Shown in pieces: positions 39,107-45,560 of a stretch of 64,000 nucleotides of DNA; position 1 is the stretch's first letter; every line of letters starts with the position of its first letter. The DNA is from Candidatus Eisenbergiella merdavium (GTDB lineage Bacteria > Bacillota > Clostridia > Lachnospirales > Lachnospiraceae). The stretch spans positions 1 through 64,000 of the forward strand of contig DWWS01000032.1 in the NCBI GenBank assembly GCA_019119595.1, read 5' to 3'. A program made the position numbers and the translations under genes. The notes beneath the pieces were generated by a model. The model did not search any database and was not told where the DNA came from. It saw only the letters and a program-made list of their open reading frames with translations.

Positions 39107-39138
39107 CGAAAAAAGAGGGGAGCCTTTGACTCCCCCTC
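39107..39138 (-). terminator. Terminator of the NHLM export operon
   Basis: On the minus strand GAGGGGGAG (39138-39130) pairs with CTCCCCTC (39122-39115) and is followed by TTTTTTCGTTTT. The stem begins inside the sigma-factor stop codon. A strong Rho-independent terminator that closes the seven-gene operon. Confidence 0.85.
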
Positions 39139-39637
39139 ATACGCAGTCCTGATAATGGGCCAGGGCCCTTTTCAGGCGGCCCAGCGCCGAGCTGTGCGCA
39201 ACCTTTGCCGTGGTATAGGAAATGTCCATTCGCTCGGCGATCTCCTTCAGCTTATATCCGGTATAATAATGAAGGATGATCAGATCCCTTTCCCGCTCCG
39301 GAAGAGCCTTCAGCGCCCTCGTCAGAGCCTCCAGCAGCTCGCCGCGAAACACGGAATGCTCCACATCCTCCGCGGCCGGGATCGCCTCCGACAGCTCGGA
39401 GGCGGTTTTTGCCGTCCGGAACCAGTCGACCACCGTGCGCTGTGTGATGACATAGATCCAGGTTGACAGGGAAGCCTTCGTTTCGTCAAACTCATCCAGC
39501 TTCTGATATACCTTCACAAATACACAGGAAACCAGATCCTCCGCGTCATGGGGATTCTGAACCTTGCCGCTGATATAGCGCCGGACCTTCTCCTGGTACT
39601 CCTCATAGATACGTTTCTTTTTTTCCTCTTCAGTCAT
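39137..39637 (-). CDS. ECF-like RNA polymerase sigma factor
   Basis: A 166-residue sigma-70 family protein. Region 2 is DAEDLVSCVFVKVYQKLDEF through VVDWFR (~25-70) and region 4 is LPERERDLIILHYYTGYKLKEIAERMDIS (~110-140). ATG 39637 follows GGAGG 9 nt upstream; the ATG at 39646 touches the ribosome site. It overlaps the upstream small-protein gene by 8 nt, so it is part of the export operon. It likely transcribes this locus or linked peptides, with the STAS protein as a possible regulator. Confidence 0.88.
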   Translation of the reverse strand: MTEEEKKKRIYEEYQEKVRRYISGKVQNPHDAEDLVSCVFVKVYQKLDEFDETKASLSTWIYVITQRTVVDWFRTAKTASELSEAIPAAEDVEHSVFRGELLEALTRALKALPERERDLIILHYYTGYKLKEIAERMDISYTTAKVAHSSALGRLKRALAHYQDCV

Positions 39638-39875
39638 GTCTGCCATCCTCCAGAGCGTGGAACCGTTTCCGGTAAAAGTCCGCCTCTCCGGCAGCGCTGA
39701 CCTGCTCCAGGCTCTCGTCGCTCAGCGCCGCCTGCTCATAGCGGCTTTCCGTTTCGGCAATGATGGCTGAAAGCCCCGGATTGTTTTGAAATTTCTGGAA
39801 ATCAAACAGTTTTATCAGCATATTTTCCGCTTTTCCCATAATAATCGTTCTGCCACCCGCCTTCCTGTCCTTCAT
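39630..39875 (-). CDS. Small protein with leader-like LSD..LEQVSAAG motif
   Basis: An 81-residue protein with an N-terminal helical region (LIKLFDFQKFQNN) and ALSDESLEQVSAAGE near residue 55, which resembles the double-glycine leader motif of the precursor next door (ELSDDELDNVAGG). The A-G-E end is not a clean GG cleavage site. The start is uncertain: 39875 overlaps the precursor stop by 4 nt, and 39839 is an alternative. It could be a second exported peptide, an immunity or an anti-sigma factor; none is proven. Confidence 0.6.
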   Translation of the reverse strand: MKDRKAGGRTIIMGKAENMLIKLFDFQKFQNNPGLSAIIAETESRYEQAALSDESLEQVSAAGEADFYRKRFHALEDGRHD

Positions 39876-40117
39876 TTATTGCTGTTCCAGGGTTTGTTGC
39901 ACCTCAGGCAGATATAATGAACGGATCCCCACGAAAGCTCGGTTCTGATGCAATCAACCATCTGGCCGCAGTAGGGACATTTCGCTTTTCCATTCGCGGG
40001 GGGATGGATAGCTTTGAAGCCGCCGGCCACGTTGTCAAGCTCGTCGTCGGACAACTCTTCCATATTCAGCTTTTTATCCTCCGGTTTTTCCTGATGCATT
40101 GCTTCCTGTTTTTTCAT
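39872..40117 (-). CDS. NHLM/double-glycine peptide precursor with zinc-ribbon-like core
   Basis: An 81-residue peptide. Residues 1-33 form a charged leader ending MEELSDDELDNVAGG, the typical double-glycine site for C39 peptidases. The 48-residue core begins FKAIHPPANGKAKC and contains CPYCGQMVDC and YICLRC, i.e. two CxxC pairs and one extra Cys (core positions 14, 17, 23, 37, 40). GGAAAGGAG precedes ATG 40117. It is 38 nt downstream of the two NHLM transporters and is the likely cargo. No modification enzyme is adjacent. Confidence 0.8.
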   Translation of the reverse strand: MKKQEAMHQEKPEDKKLNMEELSDDELDNVAGGFKAIHPPANGKAKCPYCGQMVDCIRTELSWGSVHYICLRCNKPWNSNK

Positions 40118-40155
40118 GGCAATTACTCCTTTCCTGATGAATTTGTTCTGTCTGT

Positions 40156-42375
40156 TTATACGATGCCGCCGGAAAAAGGGACGGTTTTTTTCGGCTCGTC
40201 CAGCTGCTGTCTGGCGACCAGCCCGGCAAACCTGCCGTTTTTGGCAATGAGCTCATCATAGGTGCCGTCCTCCGCCACCTTACCGTTTTCCAGATACAGG
40301 ATGCGGTCGCACTGGCGGATGGTGGACAGGCGGTGGGCGATGACGATGCGGGTGCATTTCAGTCCGTTTAAGGAATCCGACACCTTTTTCTGGGTCAGGT
40401 TGTCAAGCGCCGAGGTGGCCTCGTCGAACATCAGGATTTTGGGACGAGGCGCAATGGCTCTTGCGATCATCAGGCACTGCCGCTGCCCACCTGATATGCC
40501 GCCGGAGCCTTCGGAGATCAGGGTGTGCATCCCCATAGACATGCGCCGGATATCCTCAGCGATCCCTGCCAGCTCCGCCGCGGCCCAGGCGTCGTCCAGC
40601 GTAAGCCACGGCGCCGAGATGACGATGTTGGAATAAATATCTCCCTGAAACAGCTTTCCGTTCTGCATCACCACGCCGATCCTTCTGCGCAGGGATTTTG
40701 GATCAATGGAAGCAAGATCTCTGCCGTCATAATAAACGGCGCCCTTCTGCGGGGTCTCAAAGCCCAGCATCAGCCGCAGCAGGGTGGATTTCCCGCAGCC
40801 GGTGGCGCCAACGATGGCCACGTACTGTCCGGGCCGGATCTTCAAAGACAGGTCGTCTATCACCGGGGGCATATGCTCGCTGTAGCGGAAGGATACGTTA
40901 TTCAGCTCGATCCCGCCGGAAAGGCGGGTGATCACCTGCTTGCCCTCGGAGATTTCCGGAACTGCCTCCATGATCGGCCTTGCCATGTCCAGGATCGGCC
41001 TGATCTGCGCGATCAGCATCGCTACGGAGGAAAGGGATACAAATGCGCCGGACACCATGCCGTAAGCCGTGTTGAACGCGTAATAGTCAGCCACTGAAGC
41101 GCCGGTTCGGACCGCAAAATAGTATATAACGATCGTACCGGCCAGGGATATCGCGGTGGTGACAACTGAGCTGATCTTCAAAAGCAGAGGCGGATTATAG
41201 CTTAAGGCCGCTGCCTTTGCGTACTGATTTCCCCACCTGGCAAAGGCTCGTTTTTCCGCGCCGGCCAGCCTGATCTTCTGCACTCCGGCGATCAGAGCGT
41301 AGCTCAGCCCGTTTTCCGCTACCCCGGCCTCCATATTCCTTTTCATGACGCGCATCTGCATGAAGACGACAACAAGGGAGAATACCAGCAGGGACAGGAT
41401 AACGAGCAGGGCAGGAACCGCAAGCGCAGGCGCATAGGAAAAAATCTGCGATATATAGACCAGCGAAAATGCGGAGGTCAGCCCGGCGGAAAGCATGACG
41501 GATATCAGCTGATTACAGAGCATATTGATATACTGAGAACGGCTGGCCAGGTCGCCTGAGCTGTATTGTTTGAAAAAATCCGCCGGAAGGGACAGGATCC
41601 GCATCATCGTCGCGGCCTCTACCGACACGTCCAGCTTGGTCTCGATCCGGGCAAGCAGCATTTCCTTTACTGATGTAAGGAGCGTTGTGCTGAAGGATAC
41701 GCATACCAGGAAAGCGGTCATTGCCAGCAGGACGCGCAGATTTCCGTTGGTGATGATATCAGAAAAAATGATATTGTTTAGCCTTGGAGTCAGCATGCCC
41801 ACCAGCGTCACAGCAAGGGCAGCCAGCCCAAACAGGATATAATCCGCCGGGGAGAGTGTCTGCAGGATATGGAGGAGCAGCTCCCCGATCCCCAGCTTTT
41901 TCAGCGGGAAGGGCTTATAGAAGGCGATGGCGTCCTCCTCAAACAGCTCCTCGTTTTTCCGGTTCAGTCTCCTGCGTTTCCCGGATGCCTTATCAAAGAA
42001 GCTGTACCCTGAAATACCGGACGGGATAAAGGCCGCCACGCTGCCGTCGTCCTTTCTGACTCCCAGCATCGCGCCGGCCGCCTCCCTGTACCAGCCCTTT
42101 TCCAGCCGGACGGTACGGCGCATGATGCCGCAGGGACGCATCAGGAATTCCAGCTGCTCGTTCAGATCCTTTATCTCATCCGGAATCTCCTGGCTCTTGA
42201 CATGAAAATACCGCAGAATCTCATCGATCGCATCCTTCGTAAGCTTCCTCTGATCCCTGAAGGCGGACGAACCCCTGGCGCCCATGACCGCATCAGCGAT
42301 ATTGACAAAGGATTCCGCGAAAATATCGTCGTCATTCTGCTTTCTCTGCCGTATCTGCTCGTCAAACCAGCCCAT
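40156..42375 (-). CDS. NHLM bacteriocin export ABC transporter, permease/ATPase subunit
   Basis: A protein of about 739 residues: long soluble N-terminal region (~1-150), exporter-type membrane domain (~155-460) and ATPase. Walker A GATGCGKST, signature GGISGGQRQCLMIARAI and Walker B ILMFDEATSALD are present. It lacks the C39 peptidase domain and pairs with the upstream gene. Architecture fits the second NHLM ABC family (TIGR03797 as I recall). ATG 42375 with GGAGG 10 nt upstream is chosen over GTG 42384. Confidence 0.9.
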   Translation of the reverse strand: MGWFDEQIRQRKQNDDDIFAESFVNIADAVMGARGSSAFRDQRKLTKDAIDEILRYFHVKSQEIPDEIKDLNEQLEFLMRPCGIMRRTVRLEKGWYREAAGAMLGVRKDDGSVAAFIPSGISGYSFFDKASGKRRRLNRKNEELFEEDAIAFYKPFPLKKLGIGELLLHILQTLSPADYILFGLAALAVTLVGMLTPRLNNIIFSDIITNGNLRVLLAMTAFLVCVSFSTTLLTSVKEMLLARIETKLDVSVEAATMMRILSLPADFFKQYSSGDLASRSQYINMLCNQLISVMLSAGLTSAFSLVYISQIFSYAPALAVPALLVILSLLVFSLVVVFMQMRVMKRNMEAGVAENGLSYALIAGVQKIRLAGAEKRAFARWGNQYAKAAALSYNPPLLLKISSVVTTAISLAGTIVIYYFAVRTGASVADYYAFNTAYGMVSGAFVSLSSVAMLIAQIRPILDMARPIMEAVPEISEGKQVITRLSGGIELNNVSFRYSEHMPPVIDDLSLKIRPGQYVAIVGATGCGKSTLLRLMLGFETPQKGAVYYDGRDLASIDPKSLRRRIGVVMQNGKLFQGDIYSNIVISAPWLTLDDAWAAAELAGIAEDIRRMSMGMHTLISEGSGGISGGQRQCLMIARAIAPRPKILMFDEATSALDNLTQKKVSDSLNGLKCTRIVIAHRLSTIRQCDRILYLENGKVAEDGTYDELIAKNGRFAGLVARQQLDEPKKTVPFSGGIV

Positions 42376-42390
42376 GCTCCTCACACCTCC

Positions 42391-44568
42391 TTATTCGTTG
42401 GAAACCAGCAGCGTGTAGATGCCGCCTCTGGCGTACAGCTCATCATGGGTGCCGCGCTCCACCACCCTGCCGTCGTCCAGAACGATGATCTCGTCGCAGT
42501 CCCGGATAGTGGACAGCCGATGGGCCACCACAATACAGGTGATTCCCCGGTCCTTAATGGAGCTGACCACCTCATATTCCGTTTTGGCGTCCAGCGCCGA
42601 GGTGGCTTCATCCAGGATGATGATGGTGGGATCCTGCGCCAGCACCCGGGCGATCTCCATACGCTGCCGCTGTCCGCCGGAAAAATCCTTTCCGCCCTCG
42701 GTGATCCTGTACTGATAGCCGCCGTCTCGCTTCATGATATCCTCATGAAGCCTGGCGTCCCGGGCCGCCAGGATCATTTCAAAGTCCTCGATGGAGGTAT
42801 CCCACATTTTGATATTGTTGGCGATGGTATCCTCAAACAGGATGATATCCTGATCCACCACCGCCAGGGAACCGGTAAAAACGCTGCGGTCAGTCTGATC
42901 TATGGGTTTTCCGTCAAATAAGATCTCTCCGCTCCATGGCTGATACAGGCCGGAGATCAGTTTGGCCAGGGTGGATTTTCCGCAGCCGGAGGCGCCGACA
43001 AACGCCACCCGGCTACCCGGCTTTAAGCTGAGATCAAAATGCTCGATCAACGGCTTGTCCAGACGGGAATAGCCGAAGGTCACGTCCTTCATTTCCACGC
43101 TTCCGGACAGCTTATCGTAGGATGTCCCCTCATCCGGTACGCTTTCTTCCCCGCTCACCGCTTCCGGATATTCCATCACGTCCTCCACCCGTTCCATCTG
43201 GGTGCGCATCTCCTGAATGGTCTGACCGGCAGTGATCAGAGTGGATGCCGGAGCGGTAAAGGAGGACAGAAAGCCCTGAAAAGCAAGGACCATACCGGGA
43301 GTGAACCGTCCCTGGATGGTCAGCCACACGCCAAGCATCAGCACTGCGGTATTCGTCAGAGAGGTGACAAAGCCCGGCACCATTCCGAGATAATGCTCCA
43401 GTCTCGCGAATTTTTCCTGCTGCGTATTCACACTGGCCTGGTATCCCGCCCATCTTTCAAAATATCCGTTTTCCGCCCCGCTTGCCTTGATGGTCTCGAT
43501 CATTTCAATCCCTGCCACCGTGGCTCCCTCCAGCTTCCCGGCGTCACGCATCTGGACGCGGGTGATGTTCACCCGCTTCTGGGATATGATACGGGACAGG
43601 ATGAGATTGATAAAAATGGCGACGATTCCCACCAGCGTAAGCTGCCAGCTATATCGGATCATCACCGCCAGGTAAAAGACCATCATCAGAGCGTCAAGAG
43701 CCAGCGGTGCGAAGGTGTTGACGAGAGAATTGGCGATGGTGGAATTGGTGCCCTTTCTTGCCTGGATATCTCCCGCCATGCGCTGGGAAAAAAATTCCAT
43801 GGGCAGCCTGAGGACCTTCCACATATAGGTTGTGCTGCCTACGACAGCCAGCTTCCCGTTGATCTTTGCGGAGTAGACGGCCTGCACCCAAGCCACGACG
43901 ATCTGGACCACGCTCAGTCCGGACAGCGCCGCGATGAACGGCAGGAACCAGTCCGGATTTTCTCCGGTCAGAAGCCGGTCAAGGAAAATGCGGGAAAAAA
44001 CAGGATTGATAATACCGATCAGAGAGGTGATCGTCGTGGTCAGCACCACGAACGCCACCGCCGAAGCCGCCCCTGTCAGCCGTTTTCCGACAAAGGAAAG
44101 TACGGATCTCGGCTTGCCTCCCGGTTCAAAGTTCTCGCCGGGCTCGAACATCAGGCAGATTCCCGTAAAAGCCCTGTCAAAGGCCTCCATGGAAACCGTA
44201 TAGCTTCCCCTGGCAGGATCGTTTATGTACGCCTTGCCGCCGCCGAAACCGTTAAGCACCACAAAATGATTAAAATTCCAGTGGATGATGCAGGGAAACT
44301 TCGCGTTTTTCATCAGGCCCTCAGGCTCATACCGGTATCCTTTGGCCGTAAGGCCGTAGCTGCGGGCCGCCCGGAGTATATTTTTGGCGTTGGAGCCGTT
44401 GCGGGAAACGCCGCAGTCTGTCCGAACCTGCTCCAGCGGAATCCACTTCCCATAGTAGGCCAGGATCATCGTCAGGGACGCCGCTCCGCATTCCAGCGCC
44501 TCCATCTGCATGATCACCGGCACTTTCACATGTCCGGCTGTGACCGGCCTCTTCACTGCTTTTCCCAT
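42391..44568 (-). CDS. NHLM bacteriocin export ABC transporter with C39 peptidase domain
   Basis: A 725-residue peptidase/permease/ATPase. The C39 domain (residues ~10-150) has the catalytic Cys in QMEALECGAASLTMIL, His in HWNFNHFVVLNGF and Asp in INDPARG, so leader cleavage should be active. A membrane domain and an ATPase follow (Walker A GASGCGKST, signature DFSGGQRQRMEIARVL). It cuts after the double glycine of the precursor and exports the core. GAGG precedes ATG 44568; 15 nt separates it from the second ABC gene. Confidence 0.92.
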   Translation of the reverse strand: MGKAVKRPVTAGHVKVPVIMQMEALECGAASLTMILAYYGKWIPLEQVRTDCGVSRNGSNAKNILRAARSYGLTAKGYRYEPEGLMKNAKFPCIIHWNFNHFVVLNGFGGGKAYINDPARGSYTVSMEAFDRAFTGICLMFEPGENFEPGGKPRSVLSFVGKRLTGAASAVAFVVLTTTITSLIGIINPVFSRIFLDRLLTGENPDWFLPFIAALSGLSVVQIVVAWVQAVYSAKINGKLAVVGSTTYMWKVLRLPMEFFSQRMAGDIQARKGTNSTIANSLVNTFAPLALDALMMVFYLAVMIRYSWQLTLVGIVAIFINLILSRIISQKRVNITRVQMRDAGKLEGATVAGIEMIETIKASGAENGYFERWAGYQASVNTQQEKFARLEHYLGMVPGFVTSLTNTAVLMLGVWLTIQGRFTPGMVLAFQGFLSSFTAPASTLITAGQTIQEMRTQMERVEDVMEYPEAVSGEESVPDEGTSYDKLSGSVEMKDVTFGYSRLDKPLIEHFDLSLKPGSRVAFVGASGCGKSTLAKLISGLYQPWSGEILFDGKPIDQTDRSVFTGSLAVVDQDIILFEDTIANNIKMWDTSIEDFEMILAARDARLHEDIMKRDGGYQYRITEGGKDFSGGQRQRMEIARVLAQDPTIIILDEATSALDAKTEYEVVSSIKDRGITCIVVAHRLSTIRDCDEIIVLDDGRVVERGTHDELYARGGIYTLLVSNE

Positions 44569-44578
44569 GACACGTACC

Positions 44579-45052
44579 TCAATTCAACAGAAAGGAAATG
44601 GGTGAAATGCTTTCCACCACGATCCTGGCCGTATAGGTGCCGTCCGGCAGGGAGCCGGACAGGCTTACAGGATAGACCCACTCTCCCTCCTGCAGACCTC
44701 CCACATACAGGGCGTAAGCGTCAAGGGAACCGGCTGCGGATGCCGGGCCGGGGGCGATTTCCTGAACCGTACATTCCGTATCGCCGATGTGTACCTGCAT
44801 GCCGCTGTACAGGGAAGCGGCGTCCGCCTCCTTTACATAACAGATAACAGCGCCGTCCTCCGCCACTGCCGCCGCAGTCAGGGTCGTATCCATATGCCCG
44901 AAAATGCCCCACACGCACACGCCGGCCAGCAGCGCGATCACCGCTGCAAGCAGCATCCATATGCCCGGATTGGATACCTTGATATAATCGTTCAGCTGTT
45001 CCGGAGAGCTAATCCGCTCAAGGCTCTTTTGACGAAATACAGGATTATCCAT
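44579..45052 (-). CDS. NHLM secretion system HlyD-like periplasmic-adaptor protein
   Basis: A 157-residue membrane-anchored protein: short cytosolic start with SPEQLNDYIKVSNPGIWM, one helix (~33-52), then a beta-rich outer part. It matches the HlyD-like third component of NHLM export loci (TIGR03794 type), shorter than true HlyD. It lies 10 nt before the C39 transporter start. Gram-positive cells lack an outer membrane, so it likely acts as a membrane-surface adaptor. Confidence 0.85.
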   Translation of the reverse strand: MDNPVFRQKSLERISSPEQLNDYIKVSNPGIWMLLAAVIALLAGVCVWGIFGHMDTTLTAAAVAEDGAVICYVKEADAASLYSGMQVHIGDTECTVQEIAPGPASAAGSLDAYALYVGGLQEGEWVYPVSLSGSLPDGTYTARIVVESISPISFLLN

Positions 45053-45079
45053 AAACCAGCCCCCTTTTCACAATCTTTA

Positions 45080-45376
45080 CTATTCGATGGTGAGGATATC
45101 AACAAAGCCGGTAATTTCGAATACCTCCTGGATGACGTCGTTGACGTGCCGGATCACCATCTTTCCCTGTCTGTTCATGACCTTCTGAGCTGCAAGCAGC
45201 ACCCGGAGTCCGGCGGAAGATATGTATTCCAGCTTTTCAAAATCAAAAACAAGTTCCGTCACTCCATCTATGGAGTGCTTTAATTCCGCCTCCAGCGACG
45301 GTGAGGTCGTTGTGTCCAGCCTCCCCTCCAGCGCAAGCGTTAATCTGGTATCCTCTGTCTGTTTGCTTATCGTCAT
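45080..45376 (-). CDS. STAS-domain anti-anti-sigma factor
   Basis: A 98-residue SpoIIAA/RsbV-like protein. The expected phosphorylatable Ser is in LEYISSAGLRVLL (near residue 56). Such proteins bind an anti-sigma kinase when unphosphorylated. It is the first gene of the NHLM operon, with a promoter at 45440-45468, and sigma is the last gene. No anti-sigma kinase is seen between. GGAAGGAG precedes ATG 45376. Confidence 0.88.
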   Translation of the reverse strand: MTISKQTEDTRLTLALEGRLDTTTSPSLEAELKHSIDGVTELVFDFEKLEYISSAGLRVLLAAQKVMNRQGKMVIRHVNDVIQEVFEITGFVDILTIE

Positions 45377-45439
45377 TTGATTCTCCTTCCGGCCTGACGG
45401 CCTGCCTGATTGATTCTTTTTACGACTGAAAACAGTTTT

Positions 45440-45468
45440 ATTGTAGCATATTTATTCATTGGTAGCAA
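45440..45468 (-). promoter_or_regulatory. Promoter of the STAS/NHLM export operon
   Basis: Minus-strand TTGCTA (45468-45463), 17-nt spacer and TACAAT (45445-45440), about 65 nt upstream of the STAS start. Looks like a sigma-A promoter rather than a distinct ECF motif. Confidence 0.7.
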
Positions 45469-45560
45469 ATAAAAGAGACCTGGTTTCGCTGAATGGTAAC
45501 AGTCTGGCAACGGCTGAACGGTTTCGCTGAATGTCTCTGCATCCGGACGCCAGGCCGCGT

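What the first reader, a model, noticed from the sequence alone, without database searches (positions are those of the whole stretch)
39107..45468. Seven-gene NHLM export operon with regulatory sigma/STAS ends and no RiPP modification enzyme
A promoter at 45440 and a terminator at 39107 enclose STAS protein, HlyD-like subunit, C39 peptidase/ABC, second ABC, double-glycine precursor, a second leader-like small protein and an ECF-like sigma factor, with overlaps or short gaps throughout. NHLM loci usually carry maturation enzymes (LanM-like, YcaO, radical SAM) or nitrile-hydratase-type precursors. Here none is adjacent, and the ends are a sigma-pathway pair instead. This suggests exported unmodified or metal-binding peptides under dedicated regulation.
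Basis: partly seen in the sequence, partly recalled or inferred. Interest (0 to 1): 0.85.

Follow-up and report, generated by a model that had tools for sequence, protein, structure and literature searches.

The report
Exporter operon for zinc-ribbon peptides
A gut-type Clostridia genome carries a peptide-export operon whose cargo looks like a tiny zinc-binding protein with no enzyme of its own to modify it, together with parts of a sigma-factor control circuit whose missing pieces sit elsewhere in the same genome.

Summary
The seven genes are there, in the stated order and tightly spaced. The exporter pair is an NHLM/PCAT system: its C39 domain is 105/145 identical to the solved LahT protease of Lachnospiraceae. 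The precursor has a C39-type leader (L-12, L-7, V-4, Gly-Gly) and a 48-residue core with a CPYC-x19-CLRC zinc-ribbon pattern. "No modification enzyme" holds locally but is not unusual: 61 of 80 related loci lack the linked radical-SAM enzyme. It does not hold for the genome: a radical-SAM/precursor pair sits on contig C69, and the window's exporter is the only C39-ABC found. In relatives, zinc-ribbon cores with an extra Cys just after Gly-Gly go with one radical-SAM subfamily (14/14 sources with it, 6/26 without). The window's core lacks that Cys, and no close copy of that enzyme was found in the genome, so an unmodified metal-binding product is the best reading. The STAS/sigma ends resemble a partner-switching module; SpoIIE- and RsbW-like genes are on contig C33. 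The "second leader-like protein" belongs to a sigma-coupled family with Ala-Ala-Gly where the cleavage motif should be, probably regulatory rather than cargo. New variant of a known kind. No experiment was possible.

The parts
45440..45468 (-). candidate sigma-70-type promoter (TTGCTA-17-TACAAT, extended TG)
   Evidence: not above chance for the region
45482..45529 (-). two copies of CAGCGAAACC, starts 38 bp apart, just upstream of the candidate promoter; possible regulator site, unproven
   Evidence: 2 matches in the window, 0.14 expected, 1 of 100 shuffles reached 2; noticed after the fact
45080..45376 (-). STAS-domain anti-sigma-factor antagonist (98 aa; SSAG phospho-site-like motif, recalled)
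   Evidence: TIGR00377 69.2 bits (cut-off 53.45), PF01740
44579..45052 (-). short HlyD/TIGR03794-like accessory protein (157 aa; one TM segment by reading)
   Evidence: matches in 23 of 200 family genomes, own included
42391..44568 (-). C39 peptidase/permease/ATPase (PCAT), TIGR03796
   Evidence: 105/145 identical to LahT protease domain 6MPZ; Cys27, His101 and Asp117 of the triad align
40156..42384 (-). second ABC permease/ATPase without peptidase, TIGR03797 (start GTG 42384 or ATG 42375)
39872..40117 (-). precursor: 33-aa Gly-Gly leader (L-12, L-7, V-4, A-3, G-2, G-1) and 48-aa core with CPYC-x19-CLRC zinc-ribbon pattern and one further, non-conserved Cys between
39630..39875 (-). sigma-coupled leader-mimic protein ('LEAD2'); homology starts at ATG 39839; ends SAAG plus an 18-residue charged tail
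39137..39646 (-). ECF-type sigma factor (regions 2 and 4), overlaps LEAD2
   Evidence: TIGR02937 104.1 bits (cut-off 42.9), PF04542, PF08281
39107..39136 (-). intrinsic terminator (GGGGGAGTCAAAGGCTCCCCT then CTTTTTTCG)

Best explanation
This is a stripped-down member of a widespread Clostridia NHLM/PCAT export cassette. Shown from sequence: a complete ABC1/ABC2 exporter with a LahT-like C39 protease, a short HlyD-like accessory protein, a Gly-Gly precursor whose core has two CxxC pairs, an ECF sigma with its coupled leader-mimic protein, and a STAS protein. Inferred: the C39 domain cuts the precursor after Gly-Gly and the exporter releases a 48-residue zinc-ribbon miniprotein that needs no enzymatic modification. 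The same exporter also handles a radical-SAM-modified peptide encoded on contig C69. The STAS protein works with the SpoIIE-like phosphatase and RsbW-like kinase encoded on contig C33 in a partner switch that frees the ECF sigma, which adjusts expression of the system. The leader-mimic protein (LEAD2) reports on the exporter to the sigma factor and is not a secreted effector. What the zinc-ribbon product does outside the cell is the least certain step; my guess is antagonism or metal capture among gut neighbours.
For: Exporter: (105/145 identity to LahT 6MPZ). Leader: (20 of 23 zinc-ribbon precursors, the window's included, fit L-12/L-7/V-4/GG; rule read in PMC6363468). Core: the Cys pairs are nearly invariant among otherwise unlike cores; beta ribbon, residues 41-80 pLDDT about 80-85. 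Unmodified: (N-terminal Cys goes with radical SAM A; the window's core has none, and one search finds no close homologue in its genome). Shared exporter: only two C39 domains, the other a stand-alone 144-aa frame; C69 enzyme 65% identical to one inside an NHLM locus, with a Gly-Gly precursor beside it. Control: STAS, SpoIIE and RsbW all in 26 of 80 loci; RsbW 71% identical to that of L188, beside SpoIIE-like and second STAS genes on C33; in G252, RsbW overlaps the sigma gene by 4 bp by my gene calls; within the 80 loci: 31 with sigma and LEAD2, 3 with LEAD2 alone, 0 with sigma alone. C33 and C69 match the window's composition.
Against: No family matches the window's precursor at E <= 0.01 in Pfam, no single zinc-ribbon family matches more than 2 of the 23 precursors there, and Foldseek gives nothing significant (best E 0.36). 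Outside the cell the Cys could form disulfides instead; the core also has a fifth Cys. Zinc-ribbon loci are not free of radical SAM in general (12 of 29 have one). Zinc-ribbon Gly-Gly peptides also occur in two genomes (G135, G108) where one search found only ordinary ABC-type scores, so such cargo is not confined to NHLM exporters. The operon itself lacks SpoIIE and RsbW, the C33 module has its own STAS, and nothing shows that RsbW binds this ECF sigma. In a locus outside the 80 (L240, G307) a sigma of this family (134 bits) has no LEAD2 found beside it. Several relatives seem to drive the STAS gene from a housekeeping-type promoter (my reading). The genome is 97.75% complete with 5.41% contamination, in 75 contigs. 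The Nif11 search of the genome missed even the C69 precursor, so precursor counts are lower bounds.
Confidence: 0.55

Rival explanations
1. The Cys-rich core is a radical-SAM or disulfide substrate, not a zinc ribbon, and its enzyme acts in trans, for example the C69 radical SAM.
For: Radical SAM subfamily A sits beside such cores in many relatives; a radical SAM with a precursor exists on C69; zinc-ribbon loci have a radical SAM more often (12 of 29) than the other loci (7 of 51).
Against: The C69 enzyme is subfamily B, linked to C-x-C-GGGG cores, and has its own precursor next door. Window-type cores lack the N-terminal Cys that tracks with subfamily A. CPxCG/CxxC spacing is that of zinc knuckles (recalled).
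Confidence: 0.2
2. LEAD2 is a peptide-pheromone precursor (ComC-like): its short tail is exported and sensed by the extracytoplasmic part of the SpoIIE-type protein, which closes a quorum loop onto the sigma factor.
For: The tail is short (13-19 residues in 27 of 28), charged and far more variable than the rest (17% against 49% mean identity); of four SpoIIE proteins of relatives scanned, one has a Cache sensor domain over cut-off and three show HAMP, one of them over cut-off; LEAD2 occurs only where the exporter's HlyD-like gene does (7 of 7 genomes).
Against: All 28 aligned homologues have AAG where C39 substrates have Gly at -2; 15 of 28 fit the LahT docking rule in neither register.
Confidence: 0.25
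3. A plain class II bacteriocin operon: the core kills relatives and the sigma/STAS genes merely time its production.
For: Exporter and leader types are those of bacteriocins; lineage-specific expansion with variable cores in a related genus.
Against: No recognisable immunity gene among the seven; the core's Cys pattern is unlike pediocin-type or two-peptide bacteriocins (recalled).
Confidence: 0.3
4. A decayed remnant of a fuller cassette that no longer makes a product.
For: SpoIIE, RsbW and radical SAM A, present at the equivalent places in a part of the relatives, are missing here.
Against: All seven frames are open, the C39 triad is intact, and RsbW/SpoIIE-like genes are kept on C33.
Confidence: 0.08

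Closest known systems
lah cluster / LahT PCAT of Lachnospiraceae bacterium C6A11 (PMC6363468; abstract, sections 6, 8, 9 and passages read)
   Same: C39 domain 105/145 identical; Gly-Gly leaders; one exporter serving many precursors
   Different: the abstract calls it a lanthipeptide operon; the window has no LanM beside it, a zinc-ribbon core, and STAS/sigma/LEAD2 genes. The lah locus itself was not fetched
NHLM/NHLP export system of Haft, Basu and Mitchell 2010 (PMC2887384; passages read)
   Same: TIGR03796 and TIGR03797 over cut-off, HlyD-like partner, Gly-Gly precursor next door
   Different: HlyD-like protein far shorter and under cut-off; precursor is not over the Nif11 cut-off and did not match the NHLP model; no maturase adjacent
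Nif11-leader peptide expansions (prochlorosins; recalled, and named in the listing)
   Same: in a related genus, a conserved leader with hypervariable cores in paralogues (matches in G252's genus: 33, 20, 13, 15, 23 in five genomes)
   Different: the cores read in G252 keep a zinc-ribbon Cys pattern plus N-terminal Cys, and its exporter locus has a radical SAM; the window's genome gave a single match
RsbV/RsbW/SpoIIE partner switching (sigma B / sigma F; recalled; RbaVWY in PMC3999984, passages read)
   Same: STAS, HATPase and PP2C-phosphatase set linked to a sigma factor in relatives
   Different: the sigma is ECF-type; in the window's genome the set is split between two contigs; the passages read for RbaW describe two-hybrid tests with four sigma factors and no settled sigma partner

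Membership tests
NHLM/NHLP export system | TIGR03796 peptidase/permease/ATPase | tested here: met
   945.5 bits, cut-off 853.3
NHLM/NHLP export system | TIGR03797 permease/ATPase | tested here: met
   718.7 bits, cut-off 709.4
NHLM/NHLP export system | TIGR03794 HlyD-like subunit | tested here: not met
   37.5 bits, cut-off 156.2, only positions 1-78 of 421; positional homologue conserved in relatives
NHLM/NHLP export system | NHLP (TIGR03793) or Nif11 (TIGR03798) precursor | tested here: not met
   TIGR03798 13.7 bits, cut-off 32.3, only the last 15 positions (Gly-Gly end) match; TIGR03793 not among the hits. One relative's precursor passes the Nif11 cut-off (L082 40.2 bits), the other two zinc-ribbon ones scanned there do not (27.3 and 19.7)
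PCAT (C39-ABC) substrate | L-12, L-7, V-4 and G-2/G-1 in the precursor's leader | tested here: met
   rule from PMC6363468
PCAT (C39-ABC) substrate | the same, for LEAD2 | tested here: not met
   in the window's copy the hydrophobic positions fit only with Ala-Ala at -2/-1; no Gly at -2
RiPP biosynthetic cluster | modification enzyme in the cluster | tested here: not met
   none among the seven genes and three neighbours, no radical SAM on the contig; one radical-SAM/precursor pair elsewhere
Zinc ribbon | two CxxC knuckles | tested here: met
Zinc ribbon | significant match to a zinc-ribbon family or fold | tested here: inconclusive
   weak or no hits; predicted beta ribbon
Zinc ribbon | binds Zn(II) | not testable with these tools
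   needs the purified core
ECF sigma factor | sigma-70 regions 2 and 4 only | tested here: met
Partner-switching module | STAS, RsbW-type kinase and SpoIIE phosphatase in the genome | tested here: met
   STAS in the operon; RsbW- and SpoIIE-like genes on C33 by similarity to those of L188, whose Pfam families are; the C33 copies themselves are under the curated NCBIfam cut-offs
Partner-switching module | RsbW binds the sigma factor | not testable with these tools
   only gene overlap in G252

The most novel reading that the evidence does not exclude
Clostridia NHLM exporters secrete a large, undescribed class of zinc-ribbon miniproteins in two flavours, bare (as here) and N-terminal-Cys with a dedicated radical SAM. 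Their supply is governed by a new kind of export checkpoint: LEAD2, a leader mimic with Ala-Ala-Gly instead of Gly-Gly, docks on the C39 domain without being cut, and its free pool controls the ECF sigma factor translated with it, much as FlgM ties sigma 28 to flagellar export.
Probability: 0.15. Interest if true: 0.85.

Novelty: new variant of a known kind. Interest (0 to 1): 0.58.

Why it matters
Zinc-ribbon cargo would extend Gly-Gly export beyond bacteriocins, pheromones and RiPPs to small metal proteins, in a family found in many gut metagenome bins. The N-terminal-Cys rule gives a direct way to predict which cores are enzyme substrates. A sigma-coupled leader mimic would be a simple sensor of exporter load, a control logic that I did not see described in the listings of ten searches (open-licence papers only).

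Tried and rejected
Rejected: 'loss of the enzyme makes this locus unusual' (61 of 80 relatives lack it). Rejected: 'LEAD2 is an ordinary second precursor' (coupling to sigma and AAG motif). Judged unlikely: recent foreign island (GC 52-57% across the operon; flanks 45-61%) and phage or plasmid origin (no short-HlyD relative in viral contigs; the radical-SAM A query had no plasmid match at E <= 1e-40, and one distant viral-contig match). Judged unlikely: contamination as source of the C33 and C69 contigs (tetranucleotide correlation to C57 0.969 and 0.982; eight relatives 0.63-0.94).

Led nowhere: a shared ECF promoter (read by eye only); fold search of the core (nothing at E <= 0.001); structure of LEAD2 (helices, pTM 0.30, not searched further); genome-wide Nif11 search (missed the C69 precursor); independent test of the N-terminal-Cys rule in viral and plasmid collections (no usable loci); tRNA scan of the window (none). 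In one search, 41 sigma hits at 30 bits or more gave 35 with some small ORF passing a loose motif near by; several of those are other genes, so I do not use that count.

Limits: the N-terminal-Cys rule was noticed and tested on the same loci, with no correction for shared ancestry, and apart from G012, G252 and G261 a source counts as negative only because the enzyme is not in the stretch held. Before any drop it stood at 57 of 59 peptides against 15 of 45, and 15 of 15 sources against 9 of 30 (p 9e-13 and 4e-6). From those 104 peptides, 12 were dropped: 10 cores of the C-x-C-GGGG kind and 2 spurious frames. This removed 1 counterexample on the positive side and 6 on the negative side. Of the 6 negative sources with N-terminal Cys that remain, 4 lie within about 1 kb of an end of the stretch held. 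Gene calls in the scripts are a simple ORF picker, and precursor counts are by motif. L052 and L145, L053 and L184, L054 and L194 appear to be the same loci fetched twice.
Full report
What is there. Seven minus-strand genes run with spacings of 38 bp or less from a STAS gene (45376) to an ECF sigma gene (ends 39137), followed by a good intrinsic terminator. The exporter genes pass the curated NHLM cut-offs (TIGR03796 945.5 bits, TIGR03797 718.7). The C39 domain is 105 of 145 residues identical to the crystallised LahT domain 6MPZ, with the catalytic triad aligned. The HlyD-like gene is a 157-residue short form that matches only the start of TIGR03794. It is a conserved family: matches in 23 of 200 genomes of the same family, own included, and 328 related stretches in the species-level genome collection, of which the best 80 were kept.

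The cargo. The precursor's leader fits the experimentally defined LahT rule: hydrophobic residues at -12, -7 and -4, then Gly-Gly (rule read in PMC6363468). Of 23 zinc-ribbon precursors given to, 20 fit. The 48-residue core begins FKAIHPPANGKAKCPYCG and ends YICLRCNKPWNSNK, with one further Cys between the pairs. Across ten and 23 otherwise unlike cores the Cys pairs are nearly all that is kept. AlphaFold gives a beta ribbon over residues 41-80 with pLDDT 80-85 (whole model 66.2). Foldseek finds nothing at E <= 0.001; its best hit, E 0.36, is chain I of RNA polymerase II, the Rpb9 zinc-ribbon subunit (recalled). Family hits are weak. I therefore call it a probable zinc ribbon, not a proven one.

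How common such cargo is. A profile of these precursors gives matches at E <= 0.001 in 97 of 397 family genomes, but many of those are zinc ribbons of large unrelated proteins; I did not count the true ones. Clear cases include four tandem copies in G012 and a large expansion in the genus of G252: 33, 20, 13, 15 and 23 matches to one such peptide in five of eight genomes, one match in a sixth and none in two. I read the cores only in G252: in 26 copies leaders are 78% and cores 30% identical on average, 25 of 26 keep the Cys pairs and 26 of 26 have a Cys in the first five core residues. G252 has an exporter pair whose ABC2 is under the family cut-off (584.6 bits), and G135 and G108, which also have such peptides, show only ordinary ABC scores, so not all such cargo can depend on an NHLM exporter.

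Is there a modification enzyme? Not in the operon. In 80 related loci a radical-SAM enzyme of the linked kind (100 bits or more to that of L161) is present in 19 and absent in 61; among the 46 with long flanks it is absent in 33. At least two related loci carry a LanM (L137, L143). So a locus without a linked radical SAM is the common case. The linked enzymes fall into two subfamilies. Subfamily A was assigned in 17 stretches, and 14 of these sources have zinc-ribbon-type cores; in L161 (Sporofaciens musculi), L164 and L172 it lies between precursor and LEAD2, so that from HlyD to sigma these loci have the window's order plus one gene, though no STAS gene was found there. Subfamily B sits beside C-x-C-GGGG cores (5 of 5 such loci have a linked enzyme). 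The window's genome has a subfamily B enzyme on contig C69, 65% identical to that of L156, with a Gly-Gly precursor next to it, and no close subfamily A homologue (best 29%).

A rule that separates the cores. Cores in loci or genomes with subfamily A carry an extra Cys within five residues of Gly-Gly in 53 of 54 peptides (14 of 14 sources); without it, in 9 of 38 peptides (6 of 26 sources); Fisher p 6e-15 and 3e-6 (12 of 104 peptides dropped first; before the drop 57 of 59 against 15 of 45). Four of the six exceptions lie within about 1 kb of an end of the stretch held. One G252 copy keeps the N-terminal Cys and lacks the ribbon, as expected if that Cys is the enzyme's target. The window's core has no such Cys. 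This is the best argument that its product is unmodified. It was found and tested on the same data.

One exporter for two products. Only two C39 domains were found in the genome: the window's exporter and a stand-alone 144-residue frame on C45. The C69 precursor therefore most likely leaves through the window's exporter (inference). C69 and C33 agree with the window's contig in tetranucleotide usage (0.982 and 0.969; eight relatives 0.63-0.94), which matters because the assembly is rated 5.41% contaminated.

The regulatory ends. STAS occurs in 46 of 80 relatives, SpoIIE in 39, RsbW in 35, all three in 26, often as STAS-SpoIIE-RsbW ahead of the HlyD-like gene. The window keeps only STAS; an RsbW-like gene (71% identical to that of L188) and a SpoIIE-like gene sit together on C33, in a stretch with a second STAS gene. 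In G252 the RsbW gene overlaps the sigma gene by 4 bp by my gene calls, the best hint that RsbW restrains this ECF sigma.

LEAD2. The 'second leader-like protein' belongs to a family of about 60-75 residues. Of 41 LEAD2-like frames listed (two of them one locus fetched twice), 28 overlap the start of the ECF sigma gene by 1-8 bp. In the 80 loci the sigma was not found without it (31 both, 3 LEAD2 alone, 0 sigma alone); outside them, L240 (G307) has a sigma of 134 bits with no LEAD2 found. In the 200-genome draw LEAD2 occurs in 7 genomes, all among the 23 with the exporter's HlyD-like gene (chance about 1e-7 by hand, if the two draws are the same genomes, as the listed handles suggest). Its end looks like a C39 leader, but all 28 aligned copies, chosen by me, have AAG: 13 of 28, the window's included, fit the docking rule with Ala-Ala in the Gly-Gly place, and 15 of 28 fit neither register. 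One divergent relative, L081, has Gly-Gly and a Cys-rich core instead. The introduction passage of PMC6363468 gives the motif as GG, GA or GS. A leader mimic that binds without being cut would let the sigma factor sense the exporter; a pheromone is the main rival.

Place among known systems. It works like, and by its exporter is, an NHLM/PCAT system close to lah. Two of four defining features (full-length HlyD subunit, NHLP or Nif11 precursor) are not met by the curated models, so I file it as a variant. Ten literature searches listed no paper that I could recognise as being about zinc-ribbon cargo or a sigma-coupled leader mimic. One paper (PMC9200625, on Treponema pallidum peptides) holds the words double-glycine, zinc ribbon and bacteriocin together; I saw only its listing. 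The library holds open-licence papers only.

Noticed in passing
L117-L125 and L237 (G252) and the genus of G252: Lineage-specific expansion: 13 to 33 matches per genome to one Nif11-leader zinc-ribbon peptide in five of eight genomes (cores read only in G252), with one exporter locus in G252 that has radical SAM, SpoIIE-like, STAS, sigma and RsbW genes in one block (L237).
   Followed up: partly
L236:9754-11515: Radical-SAM enzyme with a Gly-Gly precursor rich in Gly and Phe on contig C69 of the window's genome, no exporter of this kind in the 20 kb held.
   Followed up: partly
45482-45529: Two copies of CAGCGAAACC 38 bp apart in the gap between MgtE and the STAS gene, found nowhere else in the window.
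   Followed up: no
L081:9332-9691: A hybrid in G079: LEAD2-type N-terminus, then Gly-Gly and a Cys-rich core, with no sigma gene of this family found in the stretch.
   Followed up: no
L060:11542-12374, L069:3970-4891, L237:18199-18417: Other short leader-like proteins with charged tails near more distant ECF sigma genes or NHLM loci, suggesting that LEAD2 belongs to a wider class.
   Followed up: partly
L170:16567-16896: In L170 (Candidatus Eisenbergiella stercoravium) LEAD2 reads straight into a truncated sigma gene, so the pair looks damaged there.
   Followed up: no
L251:9305-9676: A stand-alone C39-like protein on contig C45 in a stretch of lower GC (43%) with lysozyme- and conjugation-like neighbours (my reading).
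   Followed up: no
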